A stretch of 64,000 nucleotides of DNA from Paenimyroides aestuarii. Lineage in GTDB: Bacteria > Bacteroidota > Bacteroidia > Flavobacteriales > Flavobacteriaceae. Made by a program: the position numbers and the translations under genes. Positions 5,062 to 64,000 of this stretch are shown piece by piece; position 1 is the stretch's first letter; each line of letters opens with the position of its first letter. Location of the stretch: NCBI RefSeq assembly GCF_024628805.1, contig NZ_CP102382.1, forward strand, positions 1,674,001 to 1,738,000, given 5' to 3'. Under the pieces are notes generated by a model, which made no database searches, was not told where the DNA came from, and was given only the letters and a program-made list of their open reading frames with translations.

Positions 5062-5099
5062 TAAAAAAACAGCCTCTGTACAGAAGTAAAGAGGCTGTT
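5062..5099 (-). terminator. Intrinsic terminator of rlmB
   Basis: On the minus strand AACAGCCTCT pairs perfectly with AGAGGCTGTT (5090-5099 with 5068-5077) over a 12-base loop and is followed by a run of T. It lies about 23 bases past the rlmB stop. The arms share the word AGGCTGT with the IS1182 ends by chance; there is no further similarity. Confidence 0.85.
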
Positions 5100-5121
5100 G
5101 TATTTTGAAAAGGATAACGGA

Positions 5122-5859: not shown

Positions 5860-5863
5860 GTTG

Positions 5864-5895
5864 CAAAGATATTACTATATTTAATTAAAAATCAA
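5864..5895 (-). promoter_or_regulatory. Promoter of rlmB (TTG-N21-TAnnTTTG)
   Basis: On the minus strand TTG (5895-5893), a 21-base spacer and TATCTTTG (5871-5864) fit the Bacteroidetes housekeeping promoter. The -7 element ends 5 bases before the rlmB ATG, giving a very short leader. TTTGCA and TGCAAA overlap the region as a small palindrome. Confidence 0.6.
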
Positions 5896-5897
5896 TA

Positions 5898-6335: not shown

Positions 6336-6470
6336 GACTAAAATTTATTAAGTATGAAGCTCTTAAAATTATAGGGTTATTTATCTGTAATATTTACAAT
6401 TTTGTTTGTAATTTTTTTGATTAGAGATGATTCAATTCATAAGTGAAAATATAATAAAAGACATGAAAAT

Positions 6471-7652: not shown

Positions 7653-7690
7653 ATCAGTTAAAATTTGGTTTTTTAAATATAACAATTTTT

Positions 7691-9373
7691 TTAAAACTGC
7701 GTTTTATAACTTAAATGAAAAATAGCATTCGATAGTTTAAAGTCGGTGTTGGGTTGCACGCCGTTTGCGTAAATAATGTTGAACAAGCCGCCGCCAGTTT
7801 GTATGCCAAATCCCAAACCAAACGAATATAAAAAATCGCTGGTGTTTTCGCCTTCGTAATAAGCGGCGTCGGTAATGCTGTGTAAATACATATTGGGTGC
7901 TAACAAATAGCGAATTTCATTATAAAGTCCTAACTGAGTTTTTGCAAGCAACGAATTTTCCTGAAAACCCCGGAGCGAGTTAATGCCTCCAAAACGATTA
8001 TATTCATTATATAATAAAGGAATGGCGCTTAAAAGTGCCGAACTTTCTAACTGTTGATGGATATACCACCTGTTGTTTAGTTGCCACAAATAATGGGCGT
8101 TAAAGTTTATAAATTGCTGCGAACCTTTGCGGTTATCTTTTTCTTCGGTTTTCGATCCAAAACCAGCCAACGCTGTCACCTGATACTTTTGTCGAAACAA
8201 CGGATGATCTTGGTAATTGTTCAATAAATAATTCAGTGTGATGAATTGATTATTGTAATCGGCTGCCTGATAAAAATTCTCTGTTCCCGCCACAGAAGCT
8301 GTGGACTGATAACCAACGCCAATACGGTGGTTAAAATTCAGATAATACAAAACCGCAGCATTGAACTTGGTATTGAGCATGGTGCTGTCTTGTTTGAACA
8401 ATTCCAACGAAGTTTTCAACCCAAATGGCGTGTTGAACAAATAAGGCACTTCGCCCGAGAGATTAAACTGCGTTTGCTGATTGCCATCGTTTTTCCAATA
8501 CAGTTTCAACTGCTCGCCTTTGTTCAAAATATTCATCAATTGCAAATCGGCATAACCGTTAAACTGCACCTTGCCGTTGTCGTCGTTCGTAAAACCAATC
8601 AACCCATCAAACTGACTGATGTTTTGTCGCTCCACATATAAATACAATGCAGTGTTGCTTTCTGTAAACAGCACTTCAGGTTGCTTCTTGGTTTTTATAA
8701 ACGGAAATTGGCGCATTTCTTTCTGCAACTCTTGCGTAACAGCATCGGTAAACGGTTTTTTTTCGTATTTTTTTATCAATCGCTGTCTAATTCCGGTAGG
8801 GAAGTTATTGTAAGGGGTAAAAACAATTTGATCAATTCTTCTTTGTTGATCCAATGTCAGGTCTAAATCGGCACTAATTATATTGTTTAGAAACTGATGA
8901 TTCGTTAGCCGTACCGTGCTAATAGCATATCCTTTTTTTGCTAATTGGTCAACGATGTTTTTTAAATAAGTTTCGGTGTTTTGTATGGCAATGGTTTTGC
9001 TTGATTCGTCAATATTTAAAATAGATTGCAGTTGCTCTTGGTGCTTGTTGAAATTAATTTTTAAACTATCCGTTTTTTTGCCCAAATCAAAACGCACCCA
9101 ATACAGGCTGTCCGTTTTTTCTGCCGATACAATTTGGTGGTATAAATAACCGTTAGTTTTTAAAAAACCTTGCAACGTTTGCAATTGATTTTCCACCTCT
9201 TGCCCGTTATTAAAAATGCTGTCTTTGATATTTTGTTTTAAAAAAGATGTTTCGTTAGCGTTTTTACCGTTTACTTTTAAATAAATTTGCTGCCCATAAA
9301 CTGCGTGATTATTTGCAAAACAAAAAATCAAAAAAAGGACTATATATAAAAGGTATGTTTTTTTAAAACGCAT
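7691..9373 (-). CDS. Omp85-superfamily outer-membrane protein (BamA/TamA-like)
   Basis: A 560-residue outer-membrane protein. The N-terminus has a signal peptide ending VYGQQ, followed by POTRA-like periplasmic repeats to about residue 230. The C-terminal half is a 16-strand-type barrel. The loop-6 motif characteristic of Omp85 proteins is visible as NSLRGFQENSLLAKTQLGL, and the protein ends in an aromatic residue (HLSYKTQF), as required for barrel insertion. It is shorter than the essential BamA at 42411 and is probably a TamA-like or accessory translocation pore. Its partner or substrate is not evident. It is the first gene of a two-gene minus-strand unit and is divergent from rpsL. Confidence 0.85.
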   Translation of the reverse strand: MRFKKTYLLYIVLFLIFCFANNHAVYGQQIYLKVNGKNANETSFLKQNIKDSIFNNGQEVENQLQTLQGFLKTNGYLYHQIVSAEKTDSLYWVRFDLGKKTDSLKINFNKHQEQLQSILNIDESSKTIAIQNTETYLKNIVDQLAKKGYAISTVRLTNHQFLNNIISADLDLTLDQQRRIDQIVFTPYNNFPTGIRQRLIKKYEKKPFTDAVTQELQKEMRQFPFIKTKKQPEVLFTESNTALYLYVERQNISQFDGLIGFTNDDNGKVQFNGYADLQLMNILNKGEQLKLYWKNDGNQQTQFNLSGEVPYLFNTPFGLKTSLELFKQDSTMLNTKFNAAVLYYLNFNHRIGVGYQSTASVAGTENFYQAADYNNQFITLNYLLNNYQDHPLFRQKYQVTALAGFGSKTEEKDNRKGSQQFINFNAHYLWQLNNRWYIHQQLESSALLSAIPLLYNEYNRFGGINSLRGFQENSLLAKTQLGLYNEIRYLLAPNMYLHSITDAAYYEGENTSDFLYSFGLGFGIQTGGGLFNIIYANGVQPNTDFKLSNAIFHLSYKTQF

Positions 9374-9433
9374 GAATAGGGAATGAGATTAAATGGTAAA
9401 AATAGAAATATTTTGAAAATAAACGAAATACGT

Positions 9434-9463
9434 TTGTTTTGAATATAATAATTTATATATTTG
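9434..9463 (+). promoter_or_regulatory. Promoter of the str (rpsL) operon
   Basis: TTG (9434-9436), 19-base spacer and TATATTTG (9456-9463) match the flavobacterial -33/-7 consensus. The predicted start site leaves an approximately 50-base leader before the rpsL ATG at 9521. Confidence 0.75.
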
Positions 9464-9520
9464 CATCCCCGAAAATACACGGGAAACAAAATTGAATGTA
9501 GAAAATTTTTAATAAACATT

Positions 9521-9904
9521 ATGCCAACAATTCAACAATTAGTAAGAAAAGGGAGAACCCAATTGACTAAGAAGAGTAAATCGGTTGCTTTGGATTCATG
9601 TCCTCAAAGACGTGGTGTGTGTACGCGTGTTTATACTACAACGCCTAAAAAGCCAAACTCTGCAATGCGTAAAGTAGCGCGTGTACGTTTGACAAACGGT
9701 AATGAAGTAAACGCTTACATCCCAGGAGAAGGACACAATTTACAAGAGCACTCGATAGTATTAGTTAGAGGTGGAAGGGTAAAAGATTTACCAGGAGTTA
9801 GATACCACATCGTTCGTGGTGCTTTAGATACAGCCGGTGTTAACGGTCGTACCCAAAGAAGATCTAAATATGGTGCTAAACGCCCTAAAGACGCAAAAAA
9901 GTAA
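9521..9904 (+). CDS. rpsL: 30S ribosomal protein S12
   Basis: Decoding-centre protein of the small subunit, 127 residues. Start chosen at ATG 9521 ([12 protein letters not shown]), the invariant S12 N-terminus; an upstream in-frame codon at 9461 falls within the promoter. The loop [18 protein letters not shown] keeps the lysine whose mutation gives streptomycin resistance, so a wild-type drug response is expected from this gene. [19 protein letters not shown] is the second conserved loop. It is the first gene of the str operon. Confidence 0.98.
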
Positions 9905-10024
9905 TTTAATTTAAGTAGAATAGTCAAAAGTTAAAAGTCGTAAAGATTTGTGCATTGCTTTTTGGGTGATGCAAAGCTTTAAACTTGAAACCTTAAACTA
10001 GAAACTTTTAAAAGTAACAAAGAA

Positions 10025-10501
10025 ATGAGAAAAAGACAGGCAAAGAAAAGACCTCTTTTACCAGATCCAAAATTCAACGATCAGTTAGTAACACGTTTCG
10101 TAAACAACTTAATGTGGGATGGTAAAAAATCTACTGCTTTCAAAGTATTCTACGATGCATTAGAAATCGTTGAAACGAAAAAGCAAGATGAAGAAAAAAC
10201 ATCTTTGGAAGTGTGGAAAGATGCATTAACAAACGTTATGCCTCACGTTGAAGTACGTTCTCGCCGTGTAGGTGGTGCTTCATTCCAAATTCCAATGCCC
10301 ATTCGTCCAGATAGAAAAATTTCTATGGCGATGAAATGGATGATTCTTTATGCAAGAAAAAGAAACGATAAATCTATGGCTTCTAAATTAGCTGCTGAAA
10401 TCTTAGCTGCGGCTAAAGAAGAAGGTGCAGCTGTTAAGAAAAGAATGGATGTTCACAAAATGGCTGATGCTAATAAAGCATTCTCTCACTTTAGATTTTA
10501 A
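10025..10501 (+). CDS. rpsG: 30S ribosomal protein S7
   Basis: Primary 16S rRNA-binding protein of the head domain, 158 residues, beginning [17 protein letters not shown]. The conserved beta-hairpin appears as [21 protein letters not shown], and [18 protein letters not shown] precedes the C-terminal tail. The 120-base gap after rpsL contains an imperfect hairpin around TTTGTGCAT and ATGCAAAGC (9950-9976) and a stretch of AAAC-rich near-repeats, but no promoter consensus. It is probably co-transcribed with rpsL and fusA. Confidence 0.97.
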
Positions 10502-10523
10502 TTTTTCATAAAGAACAACACAA

Positions 10524-12659
10524 ATGGCTAGAGATTTAAAATTTACTAGAAACATAGGAATCGCTGCTCACATTGATGCGGGTAAAACCACTACAACAGA
10601 GCGTATCCTTTTTTATACAGGAAAAAACCACAAGATTGGTGAAGTGCACGATGGTGCATCAACAATGGACTGGATGGAGCAAGAAGCAGAACGTGGTATC
10701 ACTATTACATCTGCTGCTACAACTTGTACGTGGTCTTTCCCAACCGATCAAGGTAAGAAAATTGCAGAATCGCAAGATTACCACTTCAATATTATCGATA
10801 CTCCAGGACACGTTGACTTTACCGTTGAGGTAAACCGTTCATTGCGTGTATTAGACGGATTAGTGTTTTTATTCTCTGCAGTTGACGGAGTTGAACCACA
10901 ATCTGAAACTAACTGGCGTTTAGCTGACAACTACAAAGTTCCACGTATGGGATTTGTTAACAAAATGGATCGTCAAGGATCTAACTTCTTAAAAGTTTGT
11001 CAGCAAGTTAAAGATATGTTGAAATCAAACGCAGTGCCGATTGTTTTACCAATTGGTGACGAAGCGGATTTTAAAGGAGTAGTAGATTTAGTGAAAAACC
11101 GTGCAATTGTATGGCACGATGAAACACAAGGAGCTACTTTCGATATCGTAGAAATTCCTGCAGAAATGGTTGATGAGGTAAAACAATACCGTGGTCAATT
11201 AATCGAGGAAATTGCTGCTTATGACGAAAACTTGTTAGAGAAATACATGGAAGATGAAAACTCTATCACTGAAGAAGAAGTACACAAAGCATTGCGTGCT
11301 GCAACTTTAGATATGAGTATCATTCCAATGACATGTGGTTCATCTTTCAAAAATAAAGGTGTTCAGTTTATGTTGGATGCTGTTTGTCGTTACTTACCAT
11401 CTCCAGTAGATAAAGAAGCGATCGAAGGTACTAATCCAAACACAGACGAGCCAATTACACGTAAACCATCTGTAAGCGATCCTTTTGCTGCATTAGCATT
11501 CAAAATTGCTACCGATCCATTCGTAGGTCGTTTAGCTTTCTTCCGTGCATATTCAGGAGGATTAGATGCAGGTTCTTATGTGTTGAATACACGTTCAGGA
11601 AACAAAGAGCGTATCTCTCGTATCTATCAAATGCACGCTAACAAGCAAAACCCAATCGAAAGAATTGAAGCTGGAGATATTGGTGCGGCTGTTGGTTTTA
11701 AAGATATTAAAACAGGAGATACTTTATGTGACGAAAAACACCCAATCGTGTTAGAGTCTATGGATTTCCCTGATCCAGTAATCGGTATCGCTATCGAACC
11801 TAAAACAAAAGCAGACGTAGATAAAATGGGTATGGCTTTAGCTAAATTAGCAGAAGAAGATCCAACATTTACCGTTCGTACAGACCAAGCTTCTGGGCAA
11901 ACAATCATCTCTGGTATGGGTGAGTTACACTTAGATATCATTGTGGATCGTATGCGTCGTGAGTTCAAAGTAGAGGTAAACCAAGGTGAGCCTCAGGTAG
12001 AGTACAAAGAAGCTTTTACACGTGTTGCAGATCACAGAGAAACCTACAAAAAACAGTCAGGTGGTCGTGGTAAATACGGTGATATCGTATTTAAAATCGG
12101 TCCGGCAGACGAAGTGGATGGAAAACCATTCGTAGGATTACAGTTTGTGAACGAAGTAAAAGGTGGTAACGTACCAAAAGAATATATTCCTGCTGTTGAA
12201 AAAGGTTTCCGTGAGTCTATGAAACAAGGTCCTTTAGCAGGATTCGAGATGGATTCATTAAAAGTTACTTTAGTTGATGGTTCATACCACGCGGTGGATT
12301 CAGATGCTTTATCATTTGAATTAGCAGCAAAAATGGGATATAAAGAGTCTGCAAAAGCTGCAGGTGCTATCATCCTTGAGCCAATCATGAAGTTAGAAGT
12401 GTTAACACCAGAAGAAAATATGGGTGATATTGTTGGTGACTTAAACCGTCGTCGTGGACAAATCAACTCAATGGACGATCGTAACGGAGCAAAAGTTGTG
12501 AAAGCATCTGTGCCGTTATCTGAAATGTTCGGATATGTAACCACATTGCGTACATTGTCTTCAGGTCGTGCAACTTCAACAATGGAGTTCTCTCACTATG
12601 AGCAAACACCTTCTAACATTCAAGAAGAAGTAATTAAAAAAGCAAAAGGTAACGCTTAA
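10524..12659 (+). CDS. fusA: Elongation factor G
   Basis: Translocation GTPase, 711 residues. G1 is [17 protein letters not shown] (residues about 14-30), G2 lies in [13 protein letters not shown]3 is DTPGHVDF, and G4 is [10 protein letters not shown]. Domain IV carries [14 protein letters not shown], and domain V ends with the [11 protein letters not shown] motif. Length is normal for bacterial EF-G, with no insertion or loss of key residues. It follows rpsG by 22 bases. No tuf gene follows; rpsJ comes next, the usual arrangement in Bacteroidetes. Confidence 0.98.
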
Positions 12660-12670
12660 TAATTAAGAAA

Positions 12671-12976
12671 ATGAGTCAAAAAATCAGAATAAAATTAAAA
12701 TCTTACGATCACGCTTTGGTTGACAAGTCAGCTGAAAAAATCGTAAAAACTGTAAAAAGTACAGGTGCAGTAGTAACCGGGCCAATTCCGTTACCAACAC
12801 ACAAAAAAATATTTACTGTTTTACGTTCTCCGCACGTTAACAAAAAATCAAGAGAACAATTCGAGTTAAGTTCGTACAAAAGATTATTAGATATCTATTC
12901 ATCATCTTCAAAAACGATCGACGCTTTAATGAAATTAGAGCTTCCTTCAGGAGTAGAAGTAGAGATAAAAGTGTGA
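12671..12976 (+). CDS. rpsJ: 30S ribosomal protein S10
   Basis: Small-subunit head protein of 101 residues that in other bacteria also takes part in Nus-type antitermination. It starts [20 protein letters not shown] and keeps [29 protein letters not shown], the rRNA-contacting long loop. It is only 11 bases behind fusA, so it belongs to the str transcript rather than heading the S10 operon as in E. coli. A promoter and inverted repeat separate it from rplC. Confidence 0.97.
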
Positions 12977-13000
12977 TAATAAACTTTTTTTAGAAAATAC

Positions 13001-13045
13001 TTGTATATTTCAAGCATTGGTATTACTTTTGCCGATGCTTGAAAT
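13001..13045 (+). promoter_or_regulatory. Promoter plus 11-bp inverted repeat before rplC
   Basis: TTG (13001-13003), 20-base spacer and TACTTTTG (13024-13031) form a good -33/-7 pair. The arms ATTTCAAGCAT (13007-13017) and ATGCTTGAAAT (13035-13045) are perfect complements flanking the -7 element. As RNA read from rpsJ, this would be an 11-bp hairpin followed by TTTTA, i.e. a terminator-like structure. As DNA it surrounds the promoter of the S10 block. Confidence 0.65.
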
Positions 13046-13076
13046 TTTTATATTTACTAATTATTAATTAAAATTT

Positions 13077-13694
13077 ATGTCTGGGTTAATTGGAAAAAAA
13101 ATCGGCATGACTTCAATCTTCGATGAAAAAGGGAAAAACATTCCTTGTACAGTAATCGAATTAGGTCCATGTGTCGTTACCCAAGTCAGAACCAAAGAGG
13201 TTGACGGGTATGAAGCTTATCAACTTGGTTTCGATGACGCTAGAGAAAAGAGTGCAACAAAAGCGGCTGCAGGTCACTTTAAAAAAGCAGGAACTTCTGT
13301 AAAGAAAAAAGTTGTTGAAATTCAAGATTTTGAAAGCACGTATAATTTAGGTGATGTAATCACTGTAGATTTATTTGCTGAAGGAGACTTTGTTGATGTA
13401 CAAGGTACTTCTAAAGGAAAAGGATTCCAAGGTGTTGTTAAACGTCATGGATTTGGTGGTGTTGGTCAGGCTACGCACGGTCAGCATAACCGTTTAAGAG
13501 CTCCAGGATCTGTGGGTGCATCATCGTACCCTTCACGCGTATTCAAAGGAATGCGTATGGCAGGAAGAACAGGAGGAGAAAAAGTAACAGTTCAAAACCT
13601 TAGAGTTTTAAAAGTGGTAACCGATAAAAACTTATTAGTTGTTAAAGGTGCAGTACCAGGTCATAATAACTCTTATGTAATCGTACAGAAGTAA
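13077..13694 (+). CDS. rplC: 50S ribosomal protein L3
   Basis: Early-assembly 23S rRNA-binding protein, 205 residues, starting [19 protein letters not shown]. The long extension reaching the peptidyl-transferase centre is [21 protein letters not shown]. Where E. coli L3 has the PrmB-methylated glutamine (MAGQMG), this protein reads MAGRTGG, so that modification is not expected. It heads the S10 block from its own promoter and shares one base (TAATG) with rplD, implying tight translational coupling. Confidence 0.97.
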
Positions 13695-14323
13695 TGGAAG
13701 TAAAAGTTTTAGATATCAACGGAAAAGAAACTGGTAGATCAGTACAATTGGCTGATTCAGTTTTCGCAATTGAGCCTAATAAACACGCTATCTATTTAGA
13801 TGTTAAACAGTATTTGGCAAACCAACGCCAAGGTACACATAAAGCAAAAGAAAGAGCAGAAGTAGCTGGTTCTACACGTAAAATTAAAAAACAAAAAGGT
13901 ACAGGTACTGCACGTGCAGGATCTGCTAAATCACCTGTTTTTAAAGGTGGTGGTACAATTTTTGGACCAAGACCTCGTAGCTATTCTTTCAAATTAAACA
14001 AGGCGTTAAAACGTTTAGCTCGTAAATCGGCTTTCACAATCAAAGCACAAGAGTCGAATTTATTTGTAATTGAAGATTTTACTTTCGAAGCACCAAATAC
14101 TAAAAATTTCATTAACGTATTGAAAGCTTTAGGTTTAGAAAATAAAAAATCATTATTTGTGTTGGGTGAATCAAATAAAAACGTATATTTGTCGTCACGC
14201 AATTTAAAAAGAGCTTCTGTTGTAACTTCTTCAGAGTTAAATACTTACGGTATTTTGAATTCAAATTCGTTAGTGTTAACTGAAGGTTCAGTAGAGGGAA
14301 TTGTAGAAAATTTAAGTAAATAA
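13694..14323 (+). CDS. rplD: 50S ribosomal protein L4
   Basis: Exit-tunnel protein of 209 residues. The tunnel loop is recognisable around [20 protein letters not shown] followed by [19 protein letters not shown]. In E. coli L4 autoregulates the S10 operon; whether that holds here is not shown by the sequence. The start overlaps the rplC stop (TAATG). Length and motifs are ordinary. Confidence 0.97.
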
Positions 14324-24462: not shown

Positions 24463-24527
24463 AAGGTAGGAGACGATTATCGGAGGATGAGACCTGAATT
24501 CATAATCCCTACCTTTTTTATTTTTTT
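24463..24527 (+). promoter_or_regulatory. Structured leader with terminator-like end before rpsD
   Basis: AAGGTAGG (24463-24470) pairs with CCTACCTT (24508-24515). After a 4-base AGAC bulge, GATTAT (24475-24480) pairs with ATAATC (24502-24507), giving a 14-bp stem. The apical loop holds CGGAGGATGAGACC. The stem is followed by a 12-base T-rich tract ending 3 bases before the rpsD ATG at 24531. The shape is that of an attenuator or autoregulatory leader. Leader RNAs ahead of the S4 gene are known from several bacterial groups; S4 binding here is inference. Confidence 0.65.
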
Positions 24528-56592: not shown

Positions 56593-56597
56593 AAAAC

Positions 56598-56630
56598 AAA
56601 CCCTTTCAGTTTTTTGAAAGGGTTTTGCTT
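56598..56630 (+). terminator. Intrinsic terminator of clpPX
   Basis: AAACCCTTTCA (56598-56608) pairs with TGAAAGGGTTT (56615-56625) over a 6-base loop, then TTGCTTTT. Confidence 0.88.
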
Positions 56631-56718
56631 TTGAGTATAAGGAGTTTTTTTATTGGTTTTGTTGAAGATCAGAAATTGGGCGTTGTGCAGTGGTTGCCTG
56701 TGTTGGTGGCTGTGCTTT

Positions 56719-57201
56719 TTATATGCAGTCCATTTTGAATATTCGTGAATAGTCGCCAAATTCTGTGTCTTTTAGTTTTTCTTCAATAACTTTTTTGGCG
56801 ATATCAAAATCAACTACAACACAACCAACTTCCATTGTTCCACTACCAATACAACCACCGTTTGTGTGTCCAAGTCCTGTCCAACCTAAAACCTCGTCCA
56901 TTTTTTCTTCAAGGCGGTGTCGTTTGTCTAAGTCTTGGTCTGTTCCAAATCCGTTAATTTCATATTCAATTTCTAAAAATGAAACTTCGTCTTCGCTAAA
57001 CTCTGTAAATCCCTCATTTATTTTCTCGAGGATTTCCTTTTGTACTTTCTTGCGAAAATTTGAAAATAATCCGCTTTTAACTTCCTTGTCTTGTCCACGT
57101 TGCCCGACAATTCCCCAATGAACTATTGCCGTTTTTTCGTCTTTGTCCCAAGTCTCCCAATAATGAAGTTCGTTGTCAATTTGTTTATAGAGTTTTAGCA
57201 T
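56719..57201 (-). CDS. WGR-like domain protein
   Basis: A 160-residue protein. Residues 1-50 (MLKLYKQIDNELHYWETWDK, then AIVHWGIVGQRGQ) look like a WGR domain, where HWGIVGQRG corresponds to the WGRxG motif. The rest (VLGWTGLGHTNGGCIGSGTM, then VVVDFDIAKKVIEEKL) is an unassigned alpha/beta domain with glycine-rich segments. No enzyme motif is evident. It is the first unit of the minus-strand accessory region, flanked on its 5' side by an imperfect-palindrome element at 57317-57405. Confidence 0.6.
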   Translation of the reverse strand: MLKLYKQIDNELHYWETWDKDEKTAIVHWGIVGQRGQDKEVKSGLFSNFRKKVQKEILEKINEGFTEFSEDEVSFLEIEYEINGFGTDQDLDKRHRLEEKMDEVLGWTGLGHTNGGCIGSGTMEVGCVVVDFDIAKKVIEEKLKDTEFGDYSRIFKMDCI

Positions 57202-57667
57202 ACCATTAGATGTTTCTGTAGTCGTTTTTTTGCCTGTCGAACAAACGAAAAAAAGTCAAGATTATAATTGTCAATATGTAAATTCTCAATTACACGCATG
57301 TTGTCTTTAAGCTACCGTATAACGGAGCAGCGACTTTGCGAAGTTCTTTTTCCGAGCTTGCGTAGTGATAAGGATTTTACAAAACCCTTATACTTGTTGC
57401 TATACTCAAAAATAGAAAAAAAATAGTATCTTGCTGTACGCAAGGGCGAAAAAAAATTCAAACAGTAACTTTTTAGGAACTAACTCTATATGGATTTGCT
57501 CCATCTAAGACCGGATCTCTCAGCACAAATCCACAGACCCGTTTTAATGTATAATTTATCATAAAACTTGGAGAAATATTTACGCTTGATATTCAAAAAC
57601 CATTGTTTTAGTCAAAGTTTTATCTTGAATTAGGGCTATATTTTTACAAAATCTTTTGGTTATAAAC
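57202..57667. other. 466-bp intergenic region without a gene
   Basis: 57202-57316 is AT-rich with no visible signal. 57317-57405 is a palindromic element, listed separately. 57406-57667 contains no convincing reading frame, terminator or promoter consensus that I can see. CGGATCTCTCAGCACAAATC and similar moderately GC-rich words may be remnants of a former cassette. Confidence 0.5.
57317..57405. repeat. attC-like imperfect palindrome, element C
   Basis: About 89 bases from GTATAAC (57317-57323) to GTTGCTATAC (57396-57405), whose ends are imperfect complements. Inside are GGAGCAGCGACTTTGCGAAG and AAGGATTTTACAAAACCCTT (a hairpin). The left end AACGGAGCAGCGACTT closely matches AACGGGGCGGCGGCTT at the window end (63985-64000). 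The end boxes recall the RYYYAAC/GTTRRRY boxes of integron attC sites but are not canonical. Confidence 0.5.
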
Positions 57668-58912
57668 TTAAAATATCTGTTTTAAGCCAATTGTTTGTTC
57701 TATTTCGTCAATCGTTTTTTCAAGTCCGTTTTCGTTTTTAATTAATGTTTGTATCTGTTTTGCATTGTCATAAAGTTGTTTGTTTGTCAAAAGTTCGTTT
57801 ATGCTTTGCAAAAAAATTTTTTCAGTCATTTTACTAATAGGTGTAGGTTTAACTGCAAGTCCTTTTTTGTAAGCGTGATTTCCCCAAAACTTTTGGTCGC
57901 CAATAGGGTAAAGTATTGGGCAAATTAGGAATGGTTTTCCTGCTCTCAAACATTCTGCTGTTGTTCCTATGCCACCGTGATGAATAATTGCTTTTGTCAA
58001 TGGGAATAGTTTTTCGTAAGGTGCTGACGAAATAACTTTAATGCTTGGATTGTTTTCAAGTCTTTCAGTTTGGTCAAGCCCCCAGCCTTTTACCACAATT
58101 ATTCTTGTGTCAAATTGTTTTGTTAGCTTAACAATGGCTGTCTGTATGTCAAATTTGCACTTAAACGGCATACTCCCAAATGTCAATACCAATGGTGGTT
58201 CTCCTGCATTGATAAAGTCTGTCAGGTCTGTTGTAAGTTCGGTTGATGATGTTCCAAACCAAAATCCTGTGAATTTTGAACGAGGTGGAAAGTCTTGCGG
58301 AACTGATAAAAAATGAGAGCTTATTCCGTAAATATTCTTCACTGTCGGAACTGAAAACTTTTTAGGTAAATCAAACTTTGCTCTAAATTGTCCGATGGGC
58401 TTTGATAAAAGTTTAATACTCAGGTTGGAAAATTTATATGTCAGTTTGTTCAGAAAATTTGGTATTGGCAAGCCACTAAATGCAGGATTTGCAAATGCGC
58501 TTGTCGGCTCAACGATAGGTAAAACGTTCGCTTTAATCATTTTGTGCGGAAATTGGTCAGCAAAACTTTCTGCCAATGTCTTTACGTGATAAAGAATGAT
58601 ATCGCTTTCTTTTGCCAATTTGTAAAACTCTGTCAACGATTTTATAATTAAAGGGTAAACCCAAGTGTTTAGATTTCTCTTAACTGCAAAGGGGTTTCCT
58701 TTCATCATCTTTTTCCCTTCGTCCGAATTCAAGAGTTCTTGAAAGTCTGCTTCTACTGGTGCAAAGTCAATGCCTTATGATTTTACAAGTTGCTCAAAGT
58801 TTTTGGCAGTAGATAAAGTTACTTGGTGTCCACGTTGTTTGAGTGCTTGTCCCAAGACCGCATAAGGTTGAACGTCTCCACGAGTTCCAAGTGTCAATAT
58901 TGCTATCTTCAT
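57668..58912 (-). pseudogene. UGT/MGT-type glycosyltransferase with one nonsense codon
   Basis: Read from ATG 58912 the gene begins MKIAILTLGTRGDVQPYAVL, the canonical GT1 N-terminus, and continues to an in-frame TAA at 58777-58775 (codon 46). It then continues in the same frame (GIDFAPVEADFQELLNSDEG) to the normal stop at 57668, for about 414 codons in all. The donor-binding signature is intact: IHHGGIGTTAECLRAGKPFL. Family members glycosylate sterols, macrolides or other small molecules. A truncated product from MNSDEGKKMMKG (58732) would lack the N-terminal fold. A single substitution or sequencing error would explain the break. Confidence 0.85.
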
Positions 58913-58940
58913 TCTGTTACGGTCGTCTTTTTAAAATCAC

Positions 58941-58993
58941 AGCTAACGGGAAAAGTATTTGCGACTAAATGCTTGGTTTTTTTTATTAGCGAA
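58941..58993. repeat. attC-like element D, left part
   Basis: AGCTAACGGGAAAAGTATTT (58941 onward), then GCGACTAAATGCTT and ATTAGCGAA (58985-58993). The start AACGGG resembles elements C and E. ATTAGCGAA has an exact complement TTCGCTAAT at 59663-59671, beyond the IS110-type relic. This suggests that the element was split by that insertion. Confidence 0.4.
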
Positions 58994-59148
58994 TCAACCT
59001 CGCCTGACGCAAAGCATCTATGTAAAAGCAGTAGCTTTGAGTATCCTTAAAATTATAGTCCTTTTATTAAGCCTGTAGTACAGAAACTGCTCTACCGAAA
59101 TTTTATTTACTATGAATACTTAAATTACTGCTACATCAAAGATATTCA

Positions 59149-59634
59149 TTGGATTATACATTCACAAAAAAAGTTGAATTGTTTCCATTCAAACCGATTT
59201 ATTTTTTCACAAAACGTATTCGATGCCTTCTGAATCTGGAGGTTTGTATCAATACGTTGAGCGAACCTTTTCCAATCATGGTGCATTTGGCTTATGAAAC
59301 AGGTTGTAGTGGATTTTCCGTGGCGAGTTATTTTTTAAATTTAGGCTGGCTTGTTTTGGTTGTTAATCCAGCGGATGTGAAGAAAGGCGATAAAGAACGT
59401 TATCAAAAGACAGATGTCTTAGATTCTAAAAATCTATCGAACGAACTGAAACAAGGATTACTCAAAGGAATTTACATGCCTTCTGAAGAGCAGGAACAGT
59501 TTACTACTTTGGCACGTAAACATCGAAAATGTTATTGTTGCAAAGTTGGTAATTTGGTTACGTTACACTTTTTTGTGCAAAGAGGTCCGCCAAAAGTCTA
59601 TCTTATCGAAAACACACTTGCACCTGTGAATTAG
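59149..59634 (+). pseudogene. IS110-family transposase fragment
   Basis: Residues about 40-125 of this frame match the N-terminal DEDD-domain region of IS110-type transposases: VHLAYETGCSGFSVASYFLN, WLVLVVNPADVKKGDKERYQ, KTDVLDSKNLSNELKQGLLK, GIYMPSEEQEQFTTLARKH. The remaining 35 residues do not continue the family, and the C-terminal half of a transposase is missing. The start is not a typical N-terminus either. It is a deletion relic. Confidence 0.75.
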
Positions 59635-59914
59635 GTTTACGGGTAAGGGAACTTGTGGCTAGTTCGCTAATAAAGCATGCAAAATAAGCTAAAACGTACA
59701 GGTTTCATCACAAAAAAAGCAGTAATCCTAAAATTACTGCTGGTATATCTTAAAACCACCCTTCGAAAACTCCATAATACGTATTAAGCTACTCCGGTTC
59801 CGTTCAACGGGCTTTACTTCACTTATTTATTAATTGTTTTGGTGTTCTGTGATTTTCAATTCATCTTGTGTCCCTCTGGGCAAGACGAAAGTTTAGTTAT
59901 TAAGCGTTCGTTTT
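59635..59914. other. 280-bp gene-free stretch with a hairpin
   Basis: Contains TTCGCTAAT (59663-59671), possible right half of element D, and a perfect hairpin AGCAGTAAT (59718-59726), CCTAAA, ATTACTGCT (59733-59741). The remainder (TACTCCGGTTCCGTTCAACG and beyond) shows no feature I can name. It is probably residue of the IS110-type element and its surroundings. Confidence 0.45.
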
Positions 59915-60238
59915 TTATTCAGGTTTATCAGTTTTTAACCATTCATTATCATTTGCTTTCGTGGTATAATTCCATAAAAGTGTCCAATCTTTATTCAATT
60001 CTTTAGTTATCAAAATCACATTCCCATTTTTTGTTTTGTACTCATTTCTATAAAATTCAAGTACTTGAATTGTATTTTTAAATTCGACAGAGTCTAATTC
60101 AGATTCTCCAAAATATTTGCGCTCGTTATTTCCACTTAAATAATGAGGTCTATATTCCACAAATTTGTCTTCAGTACAAGAGTTTAATCCAACGACGATT
60201 AAGAATAAAACGCTTAATTTTTTTATTGTTTTGTACAT
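59915..60238 (-). CDS. Small hypothetical lipoprotein
   Basis: A 107-residue lipoprotein: MYKTIKKLSVLFLIVVGLNS with Cys next (lipobox LNSC). The mature part is about 85 residues with alternating charge (FKNTIQVLEFYRNEYKTKNG, then NVILITKELNKDWTLLWNYT). It matches no family I recognise. It stands alone, with element A (60341-60478) upstream. Confidence 0.65.
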   Translation of the reverse strand: MYKTIKKLSVLFLIVVGLNSCTEDKFVEYRPHYLSGNNERKYFGESELDSVEFKNTIQVLEFYRNEYKTKNGNVILITKELNKDWTLLWNYTTKANDNEWLKTDKPE

Positions 60239-60340
60239 TTATGCTTTCGTTTTTAGTTTTTTTTTCAGTTTGATCAAATTGCCATCTCCTGCTAATATTT
60301 CTATTTGGGTTTGTCTATTCTCCAAAGTTTTTCTTAAATG

Positions 60341-60478
60341 ACACACAATGTTCCGGGTATTGCCGAAGTTGGAGATTTTTAGCACAAAAGTCCAATAGAA
60401 TTACTGCCGTTGAACCTTGCACAAATGTTTCATAGAAGCACTTCATCCGCCATATTGCCAAACCGATGTTAGTGGCAG
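60341..60478. repeat. attC-like imperfect palindrome, element A
   Basis: Ends ACACACAATGTTCCGG (from 60341) and CCGATGTTAGTGGCAG (to 60478) are imperfect complements. It shares CAATAGAA (60393-60400) and AAGCACTTCA (60436-60445) with element B, 43 bases apart here and 44 bases apart in B, plus looser similarity throughout. Length is about 138 bases. It lies between the lipoprotein gene and the ParD/ParE pair. Confidence 0.6.
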
Positions 60479-60483
60479 TTTTT

Positions 60484-60783
60484 TTATTCGTCAAGTCTGT
60501 TTTTCAAGTCCATTCTTTCGTGTAAAATTCTTACAACTTCAATTCTATCTTCTGAAATTGACTTGTAGAAAATGACATGCTTTTCAGCTTTTAGTCCGAG
60601 TAAGTCTTTGCTTATTCCGTCATATTCTTTTCCTGCTTCAGGATTTTCGCCAATTCCGTTGCAAATTAACTTTATTGTTGCATAATATTTATCCGCTTGC
60701 TTTTCAGACCATTTTTCAAAAGTATAGTCCCAAATGTCATTCAAGTCATTAATGGCTTTTTGTCTCAATATAACTTTAGCCAT
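60484..60783 (-). CDS. parE: ParE/RelE-superfamily toxin
   Basis: A 99-residue toxin of a type II system. MAKVILRQKAINDLNDIWDY, TFEKWSEKQADKYYATIKLI and GLKAEKHVIFYKSISEDRIE then VVRILHERMDLKNRL are the expected ParE segments. It overlaps the antitoxin gene by 8 bases. ParE proteins usually target DNA gyrase. Confidence 0.88.
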   Translation of the reverse strand: MAKVILRQKAINDLNDIWDYTFEKWSEKQADKYYATIKLICNGIGENPEAGKEYDGISKDLLGLKAEKHVIFYKSISEDRIEVVRILHERMDLKNRLDE

Positions 60784-61024
60784 TCTTTTTCTTTTCAGCT
60801 TTTAGTTTTCTAAGATTTTCATCAAAGTCAAAGTCTTCTACCAGCGGACTATTTAATCCTTCTTGAATTGCATTTCGTAACGCAATTACTTTACTCTCTT
60901 CGTTTTCTAAAAGTCGAAGTCCTGCACGTATTACCTCGCTCACATTTTTGTATCGTCCTGCAGAAACTTGATTCTGAACGAATTGGTCAAAGTAATTTCC
61001 TAATGATATTGATGTGTTTTTCAT
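60776..61024 (-). CDS. parD: ParD-family antitoxin
   Basis: An 82-residue ribbon-helix-helix antitoxin. MKNTSISLGNYFDQFVQNQV (DNA-binding strand and helix), AGRYKNVSEVIRAGLRLLEN, and a C-terminal toxin-wrapping tail (DFDFDENLRKLKAEKKKNG). It is expected to repress its own promoter; the short 5' region contains an AT-rich inverted AATATACCAAATTTTGGTAAATATT (61034-61060 area) that could be the operator. Confidence 0.88.
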   Translation of the reverse strand: MKNTSISLGNYFDQFVQNQVSAGRYKNVSEVIRAGLRLLENEESKVIALRNAIQEGLNSPLVEDFDFDENLRKLKAEKKKNG

Positions 61025-61033
61025 ATCGTAATA

Positions 61034-61062
61034 AATTTATTCAAATATACCAAATTTTGGTA
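61034..61062. promoter_or_regulatory. Palindromic candidate operator before parD
   Basis: The stretch ATATACCAAA TTTTGGTAAATAT upstream of parD contains ACCAAA and TTTGGT as complementary halves about 10-24 bases from the ATG. Ribbon-helix-helix antitoxins bind such palindromes; binding here is inferred. Confidence 0.5.
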
Positions 61063-61097
61063 AATATTCAAATTTTTCAGATTTGACTCGGAAATTA

Positions 61098-61231
61098 CGC
61101 ACAAAGGTTCTGGCTATGACAAGTGCTGGATTTTTTGCAACCAAGCTCAATAGAAATACCTTAAGCCAAATATATGCAAAAATTTCTAAATAAGCACTTC
61201 AGCCCCGCTTTTGCAAAACCCTTGTTGTGCG
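61098..61231. repeat. attC-like imperfect palindrome, element B
   Basis: Begins CGCACAAAGGTTCTGG (61098) and ends CCCTTGTTGTGCG (to 61231); the termini are complementary except for one base. It shares CAATAGAA (61148-61155) and AAGCACTTCA (61192-61201) with element A at nearly the same spacing. It lies between the parD start and the stop codon of the LytTR regulator gene. Confidence 0.6.
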
Positions 61232-61238
61232 ATCGCTC

Positions 61239-62006
61239 TTATTTTTCCATCCATTCCCTAAATAATGCCGTTTGGCTTTGGCTTGTTTTTACATAATTGT
61301 TATATCCTTTTAGTTTTATTGAAAGAGAATTTTTATTGTATCGTTCTATTTTTTCAATATATTTTTTTTGGATAAGTTCACCACGATTTATTCTAAAAAA
61401 ATCGGCTGGATTGAGCTGTTTTTCTATTGCTGTCAAAATCGTTTCGGAAAGTAAATGCTTATTACCCTTTTCATCATATGCAAAAATCACCCCTTCATTC
61501 GCTTCAAAGAGAAGAACATCTTTTGTTTCTAAGAAATAAATACTTTTATTTTTGTGAATGGTAAAGCGCTCTTTATATTCATTTTTCTGAAAATTTTGTG
61601 TGATAAGTTTTGTAAGTGCCTGAATTTGATGATTTGCATCTGAAGACGTGTTTTTGTACCACAGAAATTTATTCCAAGCTTTTTGAAAACGTTCTTTAGA
61701 AAAGGGCTTTAGCAGATAATCAATGCCGTTTTCTTCAAAAGCATCCATCCAGTATTGGTCATAAGCCGTCGTAAAAATAATAGGACAGTTAACGGAAATC
61801 TGACTATAAACTTCAAAAGCATTACCGTCCAGCAATTCAATGTCTGAAAAAATAAGGTCGGGTTGATGCTGTTTCAAAAATTCAACAGCGGATTGTACCG
61901 TGTCTAATTTCGCTATGATTTCAGTTTGTGAATCCAATTCTTCAATAAAACGTTTCAGTTTTTTCCTTGCCGGGATTTCGTCTTCTATGATAAGTATTTT
62001 TGTCAT
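61239..62006 (-). CDS. LytTR-type response regulator
   Basis: A 255-residue regulator. The receiver domain (MTKILIIEDEIPARKKLKRF) has the phospho-acceptor aspartate in PDLIFSDIELLDGNAFEVY and the lysine in YLLKPFSKERFQKAW. The C-terminal LytTR DNA-binding domain starts near ERFTIHKNKSIYFLETKDVL and contains FFRINRGELIQKKYIEKIER. It overlaps the kinase gene by 4 bases, so the pair is translationally coupled. Confidence 0.93.
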   Translation of the reverse strand: MTKILIIEDEIPARKKLKRFIEELDSQTEIIAKLDTVQSAVEFLKQHQPDLIFSDIELLDGNAFEVYSQISVNCPIIFTTAYDQYWMDAFEENGIDYLLKPFSKERFQKAWNKFLWYKNTSSDANHQIQALTKLITQNFQKNEYKERFTIHKNKSIYFLETKDVLLFEANEGVIFAYDEKGNKHLLSETILTAIEKQLNPADFFRINRGELIQKKYIEKIERYNKNSLSIKLKGYNNYVKTSQSQTALFREWMEK

Positions 62007-63034
62007 ACGTTTTGATTATGGATGATGGGAACTTCAACCGAAAAATAATTTTCCATTTGATGAATTTGTATTGGTTTTTCAGAAAGTAAACTGTACTGTT
62101 CTTTCAGGTTCTTTAATGCTCTTCCTGATACAGTTTTACTGTTTCGCTTCAGATTTGCATTGTTAGAAACAGCGATGTTTTCATCAATTTTTATTTGGAT
62201 ACAAACCGGATTTTCTTCTGTTCCCAGATTATGTTTTACGGCATTCTCAACGAGCAATTGTAAGGTCATCGGTATGATAAAACCTTTTATGCTTTTGTAC
62301 TCGATTTGCAGTCGATAAGCATTATTGTATTTATGCTGAATGAGCTTAAAATATTGCTGGGCAAAATCAATTTCGTCTTCAATGCGGACTAATTCTTTAT
62401 CTGTTGACTGCAAAACATAACGATAAATTTCAGCAAATTCATTGAGGAAATCAGATGCTTTTTCTTTATCTTCTTCGATCAGCTGATCCAATACATTCAG
62501 GTTGTTGAACAGAAAATGCGGATTGAGTTGTGTTTTCAATTGATTGATTTTACTTTCTGTCATCGCCTTGTTGTACATTGCTATTTTTTTTTGCTGTTTT
62601 TTATTGATTAGAAAGTAATAATAAGCAAGAAAAAAACCGCCATAAATCAGACCATCCAAAAAATTTGAAAATAGCGATAGGATAAATGTTTGTTGATTAA
62701 AATTTCGCTCTATATTATCAAAAAGAACAGCAATTAACAGTCCCAAAGTGTTTGTGGCGAGTAGGTAAACAAAAAGTGAAGCTCCAAATATTTTGAGTAG
62801 CACTTGGAAGCTGAACGTTTCAGATTTGTTCCATTTTTTGATAAAAAAAAGTAGAATTAAAAACAAAACTCCAGAACCTATTAATGAAGCTAAGGCCGCA
62901 TCGGGTGTAAATGCATACGCATTGATTTGTTTCCTTACAATGACGCGTATGTAGATGGACTGTACATAGGCAAATAGCAAAATGAACAGTAGAAAAAAAC
63001 GGTTTTGATATATTTTTTGAGTGAAATTTTTCAT
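62003..63034 (-). CDS. LytS-like membrane histidine kinase
   Basis: A 343-residue sensor kinase with about four N-terminal membrane helices (FFLLFILLFAYVQSIYIRVI, LASLIGSGVLFLILLFFI and others). The His_kinase domain has the phospho-accepting histidine in LKTQLNPHFLFNNLNVLDQL, and a short ATPase domain (QLLVENAVKHNLGTEENPVC). No periplasmic sensor domain is evident, so the membrane part itself may sense. It is the partner of the overlapping LytTR regulator. Confidence 0.92.
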   Translation of the reverse strand: MKNFTQKIYQNRFFLLFILLFAYVQSIYIRVIVRKQINAYAFTPDAALASLIGSGVLFLILLFFIKKWNKSETFSFQVLLKIFGASLFVYLLATNTLGLLIAVLFDNIERNFNQQTFILSLFSNFLDGLIYGGFFLAYYYFLINKKQQKKIAMYNKAMTESKINQLKTQLNPHFLFNNLNVLDQLIEEDKEKASDFLNEFAEIYRYVLQSTDKELVRIEDEIDFAQQYFKLIQHKYNNAYRLQIEYKSIKGFIIPMTLQLLVENAVKHNLGTEENPVCIQIKIDENIAVSNNANLKRNSKTVSGRALKNLKEQYSLLSEKPIQIHQMENYFSVEVPIIHNQNV

Positions 63035-63102
63035 CTAATTTTGATGTTGCAATTTACAAAAAAATAGCCCTATAGTATGATAGAGCTATTTTAGTCTTAA
63101 TT

Positions 63103-63849
63103 TTAATTTGCCTTTTCAGGGAAAGAAGCAATTGTGTCTCCTTTATCATCAAAGAAATCGAGCTTTGCATTGTTTTCTTTGTCCACATAAAACATTGCTC
63201 TTGGCATTCCTTTATCATCAAAGAGAAACAGACCGTTGTTTTGGCTTCTTGATTTTCCGAGCATCACACGTGGTACTCCACCTATCAAACCCTGTTGCTC
63301 ATATTGTTTGTATTTTTCCTGCATTGCTTTAGGATCCTTTTTACCAAGTTCCTCCAGTTCTTTCATAATTTCTGCAGTTTTTAATTGCGATTCTTTACTT
63401 GGTCGGTCGTTAAAAGCTAACGTACTGCTCACAAATCTATTATCGCCTTGCCCTGCATCCTGTGTAAGTAGTTGCATCACTTGGTCTCCATCATATTGGT
63501 CGTATGTTAATGAAAGTCCAGAAGAATGTCCATTTTCAGTTTTCTGCCCATCATAGATAAATCCACCACATTCAATACCATCTTCATTAAAAAATAACAT
63601 TCCTGAACGTTTTTTTCTTCCCTCATTGGTCGGTCTGTCATTTATTATGTCAGTTCCGTTAGGGAAGCGTTCTACATTTGTAATGATCATTTTTACCGTT
63701 CCGTCTTTTTCTACGATGTTGATTCTCTCGACATCTATTTCACTAAATTTTTGGTTGCCTGTTTTTTTAAATGCAGTCGATGTAATAAATGTAATTCCTA
63801 CAACAGTAGCAATTGCAAAAGTTCTTAAAAACACTAGTTCTTTGTTCAT
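63103..63849 (-). CDS. Hypothetical secreted or membrane-anchored protein
   Basis: About 248 residues. ATG at 63849 gives MNKELVFLRTFAIATVVGIT then FITSTAFKK, a signal anchor. The mature region contains repeated beta-type phrases each pairing RPxxE and a glycine: NDRPTNEGRKKRSGMLFFNE, AFNDRPSKESQLKTAEIMKE, SQNNGLFLFDDKGMPRAMFY and KLDFFDDKGDTIASFPEKAN. No enzyme motif is seen. It is transcribed in the same direction as the LytTR pair, 68 bases upstream of the kinase, so it could be sensed by or controlled with it. Confidence 0.65.
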   Translation of the reverse strand: MNKELVFLRTFAIATVVGITFITSTAFKKTGNQKFSEIDVERINIVEKDGTVKMIITNVERFPNGTDIINDRPTNEGRKKRSGMLFFNEDGIECGGFIYDGQKTENGHSSGLSLTYDQYDGDQVMQLLTQDAGQGDNRFVSSTLAFNDRPSKESQLKTAEIMKELEELGKKDPKAMQEKYKQYEQQGLIGGVPRVMLGKSRSQNNGLFLFDDKGMPRAMFYVDKENNAKLDFFDDKGDTIASFPEKAN

Positions 63850-63977
63850 CTTTTTAAATTTTAAAGTTTGATGAAGCAAAAGTATTTTGTAGTTATTTCT
63901 TTCTCAAGAACAAAACAATGAATACAGGAAAAAATCGGTTGAGATAAGGAAGATTAAACGTGAGTCAGTTTTAGAGT

Positions 63978-64000
63978 GTCGCACAACGGGGCGGCGGCTT
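63978..64000. repeat. attC-like element E, start only
   Basis: GTCGCACAACGGGGCGGCGG at the window end closely matches the start of element C (AACGGAGCAGCGACTT) and the end box of element B (GCACAA). It continues beyond base 64000. Confidence 0.4.

What the first reader, a model, noticed from the sequence alone, without database searches (positions are those of the whole stretch)
56593..64000. Integron-like array of minus-strand units separated by homologous imperfect palindromes
Seen: elements A (60341-60478) and B (61098-61231) share CAATAGAA and AAGCACTTCA at 43 and 44 bases spacing and have complementary ends. Elements C (57317-57405), D (58941 onward) and E (63978 onward) share AACGGG/AACGGAGC-type left ends. 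Each complete unit on the minus strand (WGR protein, glycosyltransferase, lipoprotein, ParDE, LytTR group) has such an element on its 5' side. Known: gene cassettes of integrons have attC sites with complementary end boxes, and toxin-antitoxin pairs are common cassette cargo. Inference: this is a cassette array or a related flavobacterial cassette-like system. The boxes are not canonical, and no integrase is in the window.
Basis: partly seen in the sequence, partly recalled or inferred. Interest (0 to 1): 0.8.

Follow-up and report, generated by a model that had tools for sequence, protein, structure and literature searches.

The report
Integron-like gene-cassette system in flavobacteria
The window carries part of a gene-cassette array belonging to an integron-like system that is very common in flavobacteria but uses an integrase and folded recombination sites unlike those that define known integrons, which may explain why surveys have largely missed it.

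Summary
Elements A and B belong to one imperfect-palindrome family (E 2e-15 and 2e-12 with a covariance model built elsewhere in the genome). Genome-wide, 47 of 48 hits lie in five arrays. The largest (about 25 kb, 21 sites) starts beside a 355-aa tyrosine recombinase whose best fold match is integron integrase IntI4, but which lacks the IntI-specific insert (patch III). The two ends of a unit are complementary over seven unit-specific bases, across the gene, so units recombine as cassettes at CGTT. A conserved attI-like site joins the first unit. A 1,589-bp cassette is 97.2% identical in two genera whose flanks are 63% and 46% identical. Sites occur in 270 of 299 family genomes sampled and at 0 of 20 canonical-IntI loci tested. 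They carry fixed A·C mismatches and mostly ignore GTTRRRY (5 of 102). The window array has no integrase nearby, is partly decayed, and is absent here from the one sister species compared. I read it as an integron variant: cassette capture by a patch-less integrase acting on folded sites. Catalysis was not tested.

The parts
56633..64000 (.). Window part of the array island (about 11.7 kb in all, running on about 4.3 kb beyond the window): absent after clpX in a sister species
   Evidence: L030 positions 2634-14290 have no counterpart in G700, where the aligned flanks lie about 235 bp apart
56719..57201 (-). Unit gene of 160 aa ('WGR' in the finding; family not confirmed)
   Evidence: ORF; no Pfam or NCBIfam hit
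57317..57405 (-). Element C: short, decayed or variant site with AAC and CGTT ends
   Evidence: by eye; z -1.8 and -2.3; not found by model R1
57668..58912 (-). Glycosyltransferase unit gene with an in-frame stop near its start
   Evidence: UDPGT PF00201, 27.9 bits for the ORF 57668-58732; translation shows the stop
58935..58980 (-). Element D: half-site with R' box CGTT-AGCTGTG-ATT
   Evidence: sequence; fits the GTT-N7-ATT rule; no complete palindrome
59149..59634 (+). IS110-family transposase remnant near D
   Evidence: PF01548, 29.6 bits, cut-off 29
59915..60238 (-). Short lipoprotein-like unit gene, 107 aa
   Evidence: ORF; no family hit; label from its sequence
60337..60480 (-). Element A: attC-like site
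   Evidence: R1 80.2 bits, E 2.3e-15; its 5' part closely resembles element e22 of the main array
60484..60783 (-). ParE toxin gene of a toxin-antitoxin pair
   Evidence: PF05016, 63.1 bits
60776..61024 (-). ParD antitoxin gene
   Evidence: PF03693, 93.9 bits; homologous parDE is flanked by such sites in other genomes
61093..61236 (-). Element B: attC-like site
   Evidence: R1 66.9 bits, E 2e-12; near copies elsewhere in the genome at 85-88% identity
61239..62006 (-). LytTR response regulator, one of three genes in one large unit
   Evidence: PF04397, PF00072
62003..63034 (-). Histidine kinase of the same unit
   Evidence: PF06580
63103..63879 (-). Third gene of the same unit, about 250 aa, family unknown
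   Evidence: ORF; no hit
63975..64000 (-). 3' end of element E with R' box GTT-GTGCGAC, which matches B's R'' in 6 of 7 bases: the LytTR unit looks like one cassette of about 2.75 kb
   Evidence: sequences, compared by eye

Best explanation
The window array is a partly decayed cassette array, without its own integrase, of an integron-like system. In this system a dedicated tyrosine recombinase, related to IntI and Xer proteins but without the IntI-specific insert, captures and releases circular, mostly single-gene cassettes. Each cassette ends in a roughly 140-base attC-like site that folds as a hairpin. Exchange takes place at a conserved CGTT: between two such sites to release a cassette, or between a cassette site and an attI-like site next to the integrase gene to capture one. 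Shown by comparative sequence: unit boundaries at CGTT, paired ends within a unit, selection for the fold, the attI-like site, the integrase next to arrays, and exchange of whole units between genera. Inferred: that this integrase is the catalyst, that one folded strand is the substrate (probably the strand opposite the cassette genes), and that the fixed A·C mismatches (G·T on the other strand) mark the strand or the register.
For: (1) Paired ends: the R'' of a unit is complementary to the R' at the start of the same unit: main array 124 of 152 positions in 19 units, own-site pairing 2.65 of 8, 0 of 100,000 permutations. Repeated in 10 units of other own arrays, 64 beside close integrase relatives and 74 beside distant ones; 0 of 5,000 shuffles each. 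(2) Covariation: 115 sites not used for the model have 90.3% of cells paired and 401 two-sided changes against 110 +/- 11 shuffled. (3) attI-like core beside the integrase start in 16 loci; its R' matches the first unit's R'' at 6-7 of 7 bases in 11 of 13 loci, cross mean 2.07 (two of the 11 share one cassette). (4) Integrase beside arrays: 12 of 16 close relatives; 14 of 16 loci of distant relatives taken in order of integrase score (selection told in the full report); 0 of 20 canonical IntI loci. (5) Precise exchange: a 1,589-bp unit of equal length, 97.2% identical, with flanks 62.8% and 46.3% identical; two more shared units begin at CCGTT and end at or just after the R'' box. (6) A group II intron lies in a site of each of two arrays, on the strand opposite the cassettes, at TTGT/T, as reported for group IIC-attC introns (PMC7923331, passages); the intron's own class was not tested.
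Against: No recombination was observed. RNAalifold found no consensus structure on the 13-sequence alignment; the structure was drawn by hand and then tested. On two measures it does not beat shuffles clearly: further pair types (94 of 500, 345 of 500) and, on the 13 sites, pairs with two-sided change (43 of 500). Several sites folded in place are no better than shuffles (e23 z +0.1, e08 -0.9, window A -0.5). attI failed in 2 of 13 loci (L077, L079), and the GTT reads GAT in L077 and L091. No sites were found beside 4 of 16 close relatives: three of these contigs end within about 2 kb upstream (one of the three, L087, also has a stop), and the fourth (L086) has two stops. Some family genomes with sites gave no integrase match at 1e-30. 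In the window A's R'' does not match B's R', so the ParDE unit is not an intact cassette there. The tree does not show that the two integrase groups form one clade.
Confidence: 0.88

Rival explanations
1. An ordinary chromosomal integron or CALIN whose IntI and attC are merely divergent.
For: Same layout (integrase divergent from the array, attI-like site, co-oriented cassettes); top fold match is IntI4 2a3v; the C-terminus SPLD-L resembles that of IntI. Smyshlyaev et al. note that the IntI insertion is not fully conserved in their integron-like subgroup (PMC8138268, passages).
Against: About 43 residues of the IntI insert are missing; both integron-integrase models are below cut-off; no insert of that size appears in the 16 close and 20 distant relatives aligned (some of the close ones partial). 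GTTRRRY holds in 5 of 102 sites. Canonical IntI exists in the phylum but no R1 site at E up to 0.1 lies in the stretches (up to about 10 kb each side) around 20 such genes.
Confidence: 0.15
2. Xer-dif style modules: host XerC/XerD move units flanked by short dif-like sites.
For: Best NCBIfam score of the integrase is archaeal XerA (211.5 bits); toxin-antitoxin pairs are common module cargo (recalled).
Against: One long hairpin site per unit with a unit-specific N7 arm rather than short conserved sites; a dedicated integrase and attI-like site at the arrays; the genome's two other tyrosine recombinases found by Pfam score only 98 and 81 bits against it.
Confidence: 0.04
3. The repeats are a dispersed structured-RNA, terminator or REP/MITE family that happens to lie between genes.
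For: Imperfect palindromes between genes; some contain an extra nested hairpin.
Against: 47 of 48 hits lie in five same-strand arrays; complementarity of the outer arms is between the two ends of a unit, across the gene, and not within one repeat; no Rfam family matches the sites at gathering score in the stretches searched.
Confidence: 0.02
4. The window part is an inert relic: this array no longer moves, whatever the system does elsewhere.
For: Integrase is about 460 kb away; A's R' begins CATT and B's CTTT instead of CGTT; C, D and E are atypical; an IS remnant and, beyond the window, a group II intron interrupt it; the glycosyltransferase has a stop.
Against: An integrase elsewhere in the same genome could act in trans on A and B; the E-B unit keeps 6 of 7 paired bases.
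Confidence: 0.55

Closest known systems
Chromosomal (sedentary) integrons and CALINs
   Same: Dedicated tyrosine recombinase, adjacent attI-like site, co-oriented mostly single-gene cassettes each ending in an imperfect palindrome with AAC/GTT boxes, precise exchange at GTT, arrays without integrase, group II introns inserted on the opposite strand at TTGT/T
   Different: No IntI-specific insert (patch III); R boxes are GTT-N7-ATT / AAC-N7-AAC, paired over 7 unit-specific bases plus a fixed mismatch, mostly not GTTRRRY; two further fixed A-C mismatches in the inner helix
IntI integrases (V. cholerae IntI4, PDB 2a3v)
   Same: Best Foldseek match (E 3e-16), same core and a similar SPLD-L ending
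   Different: About 43 residues missing between catalytic boxes; extra 75-residue N-terminal domain with no clear solved-structure match (best E 0.3)
XerA/XerC/XerD recombinases
   Same: Similar catalytic core; best NCBIfam score is recomb_XerA_Arch (211.5 bits, below the 220 cut-off), whose product name already reads 'site-specific tyrosine recombinase/integron integrase'
   Different: Array-associated rather than a lone dif-site enzyme; own N-terminal domain
Acinetobacter pdif modules (listing of PMC7399989, otherwise recalled)
   Same: Small mobile units, some with toxin-antitoxin genes, moved by Y-recombinases
   Different: Short conserved Xer sites on both sides of a module rather than one folded site per unit

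Membership tests
Integron | Integrase is IntI with the IntI-specific domain around patch III | tested here: not met
   Query 263-282 spans 18 residues where IntI4 has 61; TIGR02249 200.4 bits against cut-off 265; no such insert in 16 close and 20 distant relatives. Definition taken from PMC9668308 (passages)
Integron | Array of co-oriented cassettes, each with one recombination site at its 3' end | tested here: met
   21 sites on one strand over about 25 kb beside the integrase; some stretches between sites hold two genes
Integron | attI site beside the integrase gene, joined to the first cassette | tested here: met
   Conserved core in 16 loci; R' matches first R'' in 11 of 13
Integron | attC boxes RYYYAAC and GTTRRRY | tested here: not met
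   AAC and GTT met; GTTRRRY in 5 of 102 sites
Integron | attC is an imperfect palindrome under selection for its fold | tested here: met
   Covariation score 0.442 against 0.096 +/- 0.007 shuffled in 115 sites not used for the model; recognition by the enzyme itself not tested
Integron | Bottom-strand recombination, excision as circles, attC x attI insertion | not testable with these tools
   Needs an assay; introns on the opposite strand are only indirect support
Integron | Precise gain or loss of cassettes between genomes | tested here: met
CALIN (array without integrase) | At least two attC close together and no integrase nearby | tested here: inconclusive
   The window array has A and B plus three model hits beyond the window and no tyrosine recombinase near, but the sites are not canonical attC
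Xer-dif module | Units bounded by dif-like XerC/XerD sites | tested here: inconclusive
   Sites found are long palindromes with variable arms; no explicit dif search was run

The most novel reading that the evidence does not exclude
A separate class of integron, near-universal in this family of Bacteroidota and spread through the phylum. A patch-less integrase reads hairpin sites marked by fixed A·C / G·T positions instead of extrahelical bases; two integrase groups with opposite gene layouts (array upstream and divergent, or downstream and co-directional) exchange cassettes; and standard integron finders miss the system because they require the IntI insert and model other attC sites.
Probability: 0.72. 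Interest if true: 0.92.

Novelty: new variant of a known kind. Interest (0 to 1): 0.88.

Why it matters
Integrons are seen mainly in Gammaproteobacteria. [quoted passage not shown] Here an integron-like system appears in most sampled genomes of a large family, with arrays of tens of cassettes and exchange across genera. It would add a large, little-noticed pool of mobile genes. It also makes a mechanistic question testable: the patch III region is described as necessary for integron recombination (PMC9668308, passages), yet here cassettes move beside an enzyme without it.

Tried and rejected
RNAalifold on the first alignment gave no structure, so the structure was drawn from single folds and tested afterwards. 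A hand-made pattern for canonical attC found sites at only 2 of 20 canonical IntI loci, so it is too insensitive to say anything. The N-terminal domain was suspected to be HARP-like from its sequence; Foldseek gave no match better than E 0.3, so that idea is dropped. The one scan of genome contigs with a single protein found only two distant loci. A control of the site model outside the phylum was not obtained; the controls are 145 of 296 phylum genomes without a hit, 0 hits at E up to 0.1 in 358 kb around 20 canonical IntI genes and one hit of E 0.09 in 54 kb around 15 of them. Whether R1 sites in families that also have canonical IntI (f17, f18, f24) belong to patch-less integrases there was not resolved. 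Paper searches for an earlier description listed none; bioRxiv and most subscription journals are not held.
Full report
What was checked. CAATAGAA and AAGCACTTCA recur at 43 and 44 bases spacing. The minus-strand B sequence has relatives elsewhere in the genome, nine of them in a run on one strand between 2.17 and 2.20 Mb of the single 2.96-Mb contig (E from 6e-5 to 0.4). C, D and E are weaker: C and E look like short variants of the same layout, D is a half-site near an IS110-family remnant, and the site model finds none of the three in the window.

The main array. Just beyond that run lies a 355-aa tyrosine recombinase (2,199,491-2,200,558, plus strand), and on its 5' side, on the opposite strand, about 25 kb of mostly single-gene units separated by palindromes. 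I read 21 sites by eye (e01-e24 with gaps); the model also places 21 there. Two copies of an IS110-like element (label recalled; same start of a 351-aa ORF) sit at the same place in e06 and e16, and a group II intron sits in e15.

The decisive sequence test. If units are cassettes exchanged at GTT, the 5' box of a site (R'', ending AAC) must pair with the GTT box that begins the same unit, which lies a gene away at the end of the previous site, and not with the GTT box of its own site. In 19 testable units (one of 20 neighbours dropped because no R' had been read) the first eight positions match in 124 of 152; own-site pairing averages 2.65 of 8 (n = 20), all other pairings 2.81 (n = 381); none of 100,000 permutations reaches the observed value. 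I repeated the test on sites found by the model: all 23 non-main sites of this genome with E up to 0.01, 78 of 83 beside close integrase relatives, and 84 of 124 beside distant ones. Units tested were 10, 64 and 74 (neighbours dropped for a missing box or a gap over 4 kb: 9, 5 and 1); means 6.40, 6.11 and 6.42 of 8, own-site 2.08, 2.56 and 2.89, no shuffle of 5,000 reaching them. The eighth position matches in 0 of those 148; in the main array, by eye, it matches once in 19, in a pair that does not fit at all (e22-e23).

Site anatomy. On the cassette strand the boxes are AAC-N7-AAC on the left and GTT-N7-ATT on the right. I gave 105 of the 207 relatives' sites (the shorter, better-scoring ones); the right box was located in 102. 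The base after N7 on the right is A in 102 of 102 and its partner is C in about nine of ten; GTTRRRY, the canonical rule (PMC7923331, passages), holds in 5 of 102. Next comes a short unpaired stretch and an inner helix with two more fixed A·C mismatches (101 and 114 of 115 sites). On the complementary strand these are G·T pairs, and in the circular-cassette form that strand folds more stably in 12 of 17 sites (counted). A model built from 13 sites was tested on 115 sites beside distant integrases, none used in building: 90.3% of cells paired, 401 two-sided changes against 110 +/- 11 after shuffling, covariation 0.442 against 0.096. That alignment was fitted to the model, which favours pairing; sliding the partner by one to three columns drops pairing to 26-41%; the number of further pair types shows no excess (345 of 500 shuffles as high). 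On the 13 building sites the same hand-drawn structure gave 74.1% against 62.2%, with weak excess in two measures, and RNAalifold alone found nothing.

Genome-wide. The model gives 48 hits at E up to 1 (150 of 2,592 first-look candidates scored); 47 lie in five arrays at about 0.68-0.70, 1.23-1.24, 1.73-1.74 (the window), 2.07-2.08 and 2.17-2.20 Mb, and one lies alone at 1.56 Mb. The window array begins after clpX and runs on for about 11.7 kb. In a sister species (ClpX 95% identical) the aligned flanks are about 235 bp apart, so the whole array is extra here; this is the only relative compared. A group II intron interrupts the array beyond the window. Within the window only the LytTR unit keeps matching ends (6 of 7 bases, E to B); the ParDE unit does not (A's R'' against B's R').

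Integrase. NCBIfam places it nearest archaeal XerA (211.5 bits, cut-off 220) and then integron integrase (200.4, cut-off 265). Against IntI4 the alignment leaves 18 residues where IntI4 has 61. An AlphaFold2 model (mean pLDDT 83.6, pTM 0.49) matches IntI4 best in the PDB. A 75-residue N-terminal domain is conserved in the close group; two distant-group proteins align with it at 18 and 25% identity; it has no clear fold match. In a family sample, 17 of 299 genomes including this one hold a close relative (at least 460 bits; the next best is 254), and 225 of 299 have some match at 1e-30. Sites lie beside 12 of 16 close relatives, upstream and divergent. For the distant group (mostly about 375-390 aa) I took 16 loci in order of integrase score, skipping three at contig ends; the site list had been seen by then and showed a hit near one of them (G050). 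Of the 16, 14 have sites, downstream and co-directional; the 16 loci come from 14 genomes, and one genome gives two identical integrases. Four more loci were taken knowing of hits. In the tree the close group and the canonical IntI group are each one clade (100/100), while the distant group is not resolved as one; six proteins were left out, and 11 of the 12 IntI rows come from one family. Over-cut-off canonical IntI occurs in 105 of 395 phylum genomes; in the own family two matches are listed, both below cut-off. No site at E up to 0.1 lies in the stretches around 20 canonical genes, seven of them shortened (contig ends or the stretch asked for).

attI. Next to the start of the close-group integrase lies a conserved core, roughly CACATATTTATGT followed by GTT (GAT in two), in the 16 loci aligned (one of 17 left out), and in most of them a second inverted repeat nearer the gene (some start codons were set by hand). 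The bases after its GTT match the R'' of the first site at 6 or 7 of 7 in 11 of 13 loci, cross mean 2.07, often across a whole gene (cores typed; L083 and L084 share one cassette).

Movement. Two genomes of different genera have integrases 62.5% identical but the same first cassette: 1,589 bp in both, 97.2% identical, with 62.8% identity on the integrase side and 46.3% over 54 columns beyond the far CGTT. The eighth unit of this genome's main array recurs in a close-group and in a distant-group array at about 92%, with similarity beginning at CCGTT and fading just after the R'' box; another unit is shared between the two groups at 86%. These are all the cases a blastn comparison of the array loci gave at 82% and 350 bp or more. 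The window's parDE pair has relatives in 74 of 397 family genomes; of the 30 best loci including the window's own, 13 have a site directly 3', 13 close 5', 17 at least one and 9 both.

Spread. At E up to 1e-4, sites occur in 270 of 299 family genomes (187 of 203 genera) and 151 of 296 phylum genomes, with stricter filters and ten candidates scored per genome. The family is taken to be Flavobacteriaceae from names of the closest proteins and a Flavobacteria ribosomal leader in the window; the genome itself is unnamed.

Introns. In both insertions whose ends I read, joining the flanks by eye gives TTGT followed by T with the intron on the strand opposite the cassettes (sequences), the target described for group IIC-attC introns. 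This is indirect but independent support that the sites act as attC-like hairpins and that the strand opposite the genes is the folded one.

Judgement. It works like an integron in every way that sequence comparison could show here. It fails two features by which integrons are defined, the IntI insert and the canonical boxes, so I file it as a variant and not as a member. The insertion is said to be not fully conserved in one published integron-like subgroup (PMC8138268), and a relative of this integrase already bears the name 'site-specific tyrosine recombinase/integron integrase' in NCBI, so parts of it have been touched on before. Papers seen only in passages: PMC9668308, PMC8618304, PMC8138268, PMC10013915 (IntegronFinder found no integron in a Tenacibaculum), PMC2426708, PMC9024848, PMC7370490, PMC7923331. 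Others were seen as search listings only.

Noticed in passing
L029 2891-10764 (C1 2,066,890-2,074,763): Four group II introns with equal scores within about 8 kb beside a 23S/5S rRNA locus and another cassette array.
   Followed up: no
L026 13396-13601 and 1169-1372; L030 12344-12548: Some sites carry a nested second hairpin in their central part (inverted repeats such as AAACCATTTTTTATTT or AGCTTTTTAT), lengthening the site to about 205 bases. Origin unexplained.
   Followed up: no
L026 8094-9149 and L025 17737-18792: Two copies of an IS110-like transposase ORF at the same position of two different sites (e06, e16), suggesting an insertion sequence that targets these hairpins.
   Followed up: partly
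window 58775-58777: In-frame stop at codon 46 of the glycosyltransferase gene.
   Followed up: partly
L083 1669-3257 and the same unit in L084: The shared first cassette encodes what look like an ArsR-type regulator and a mercury-transport-like membrane protein (labels recalled from sequence, not searched).
   Followed up: no
G219 C1 2,065,934-2,134,985; G097 C1 189,828-239,567: Among the ten best sites per genome, same-strand hits spread over about 69 and 50 kb: possibly very large arrays; the stretches between were not read.
   Followed up: no
window 24475-24507: S4-Flavobacteria ribosomal protein leader (Rfam RF03141, 46.2 bits).
   Followed up: no
L026 5893-6035 against L076 and L116: In the shared eighth cassette the gene and R'' are conserved at about 92% while the interior of the recombination site has diverged, as if site interiors are replaced or evolve fast.
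   Followed up: no
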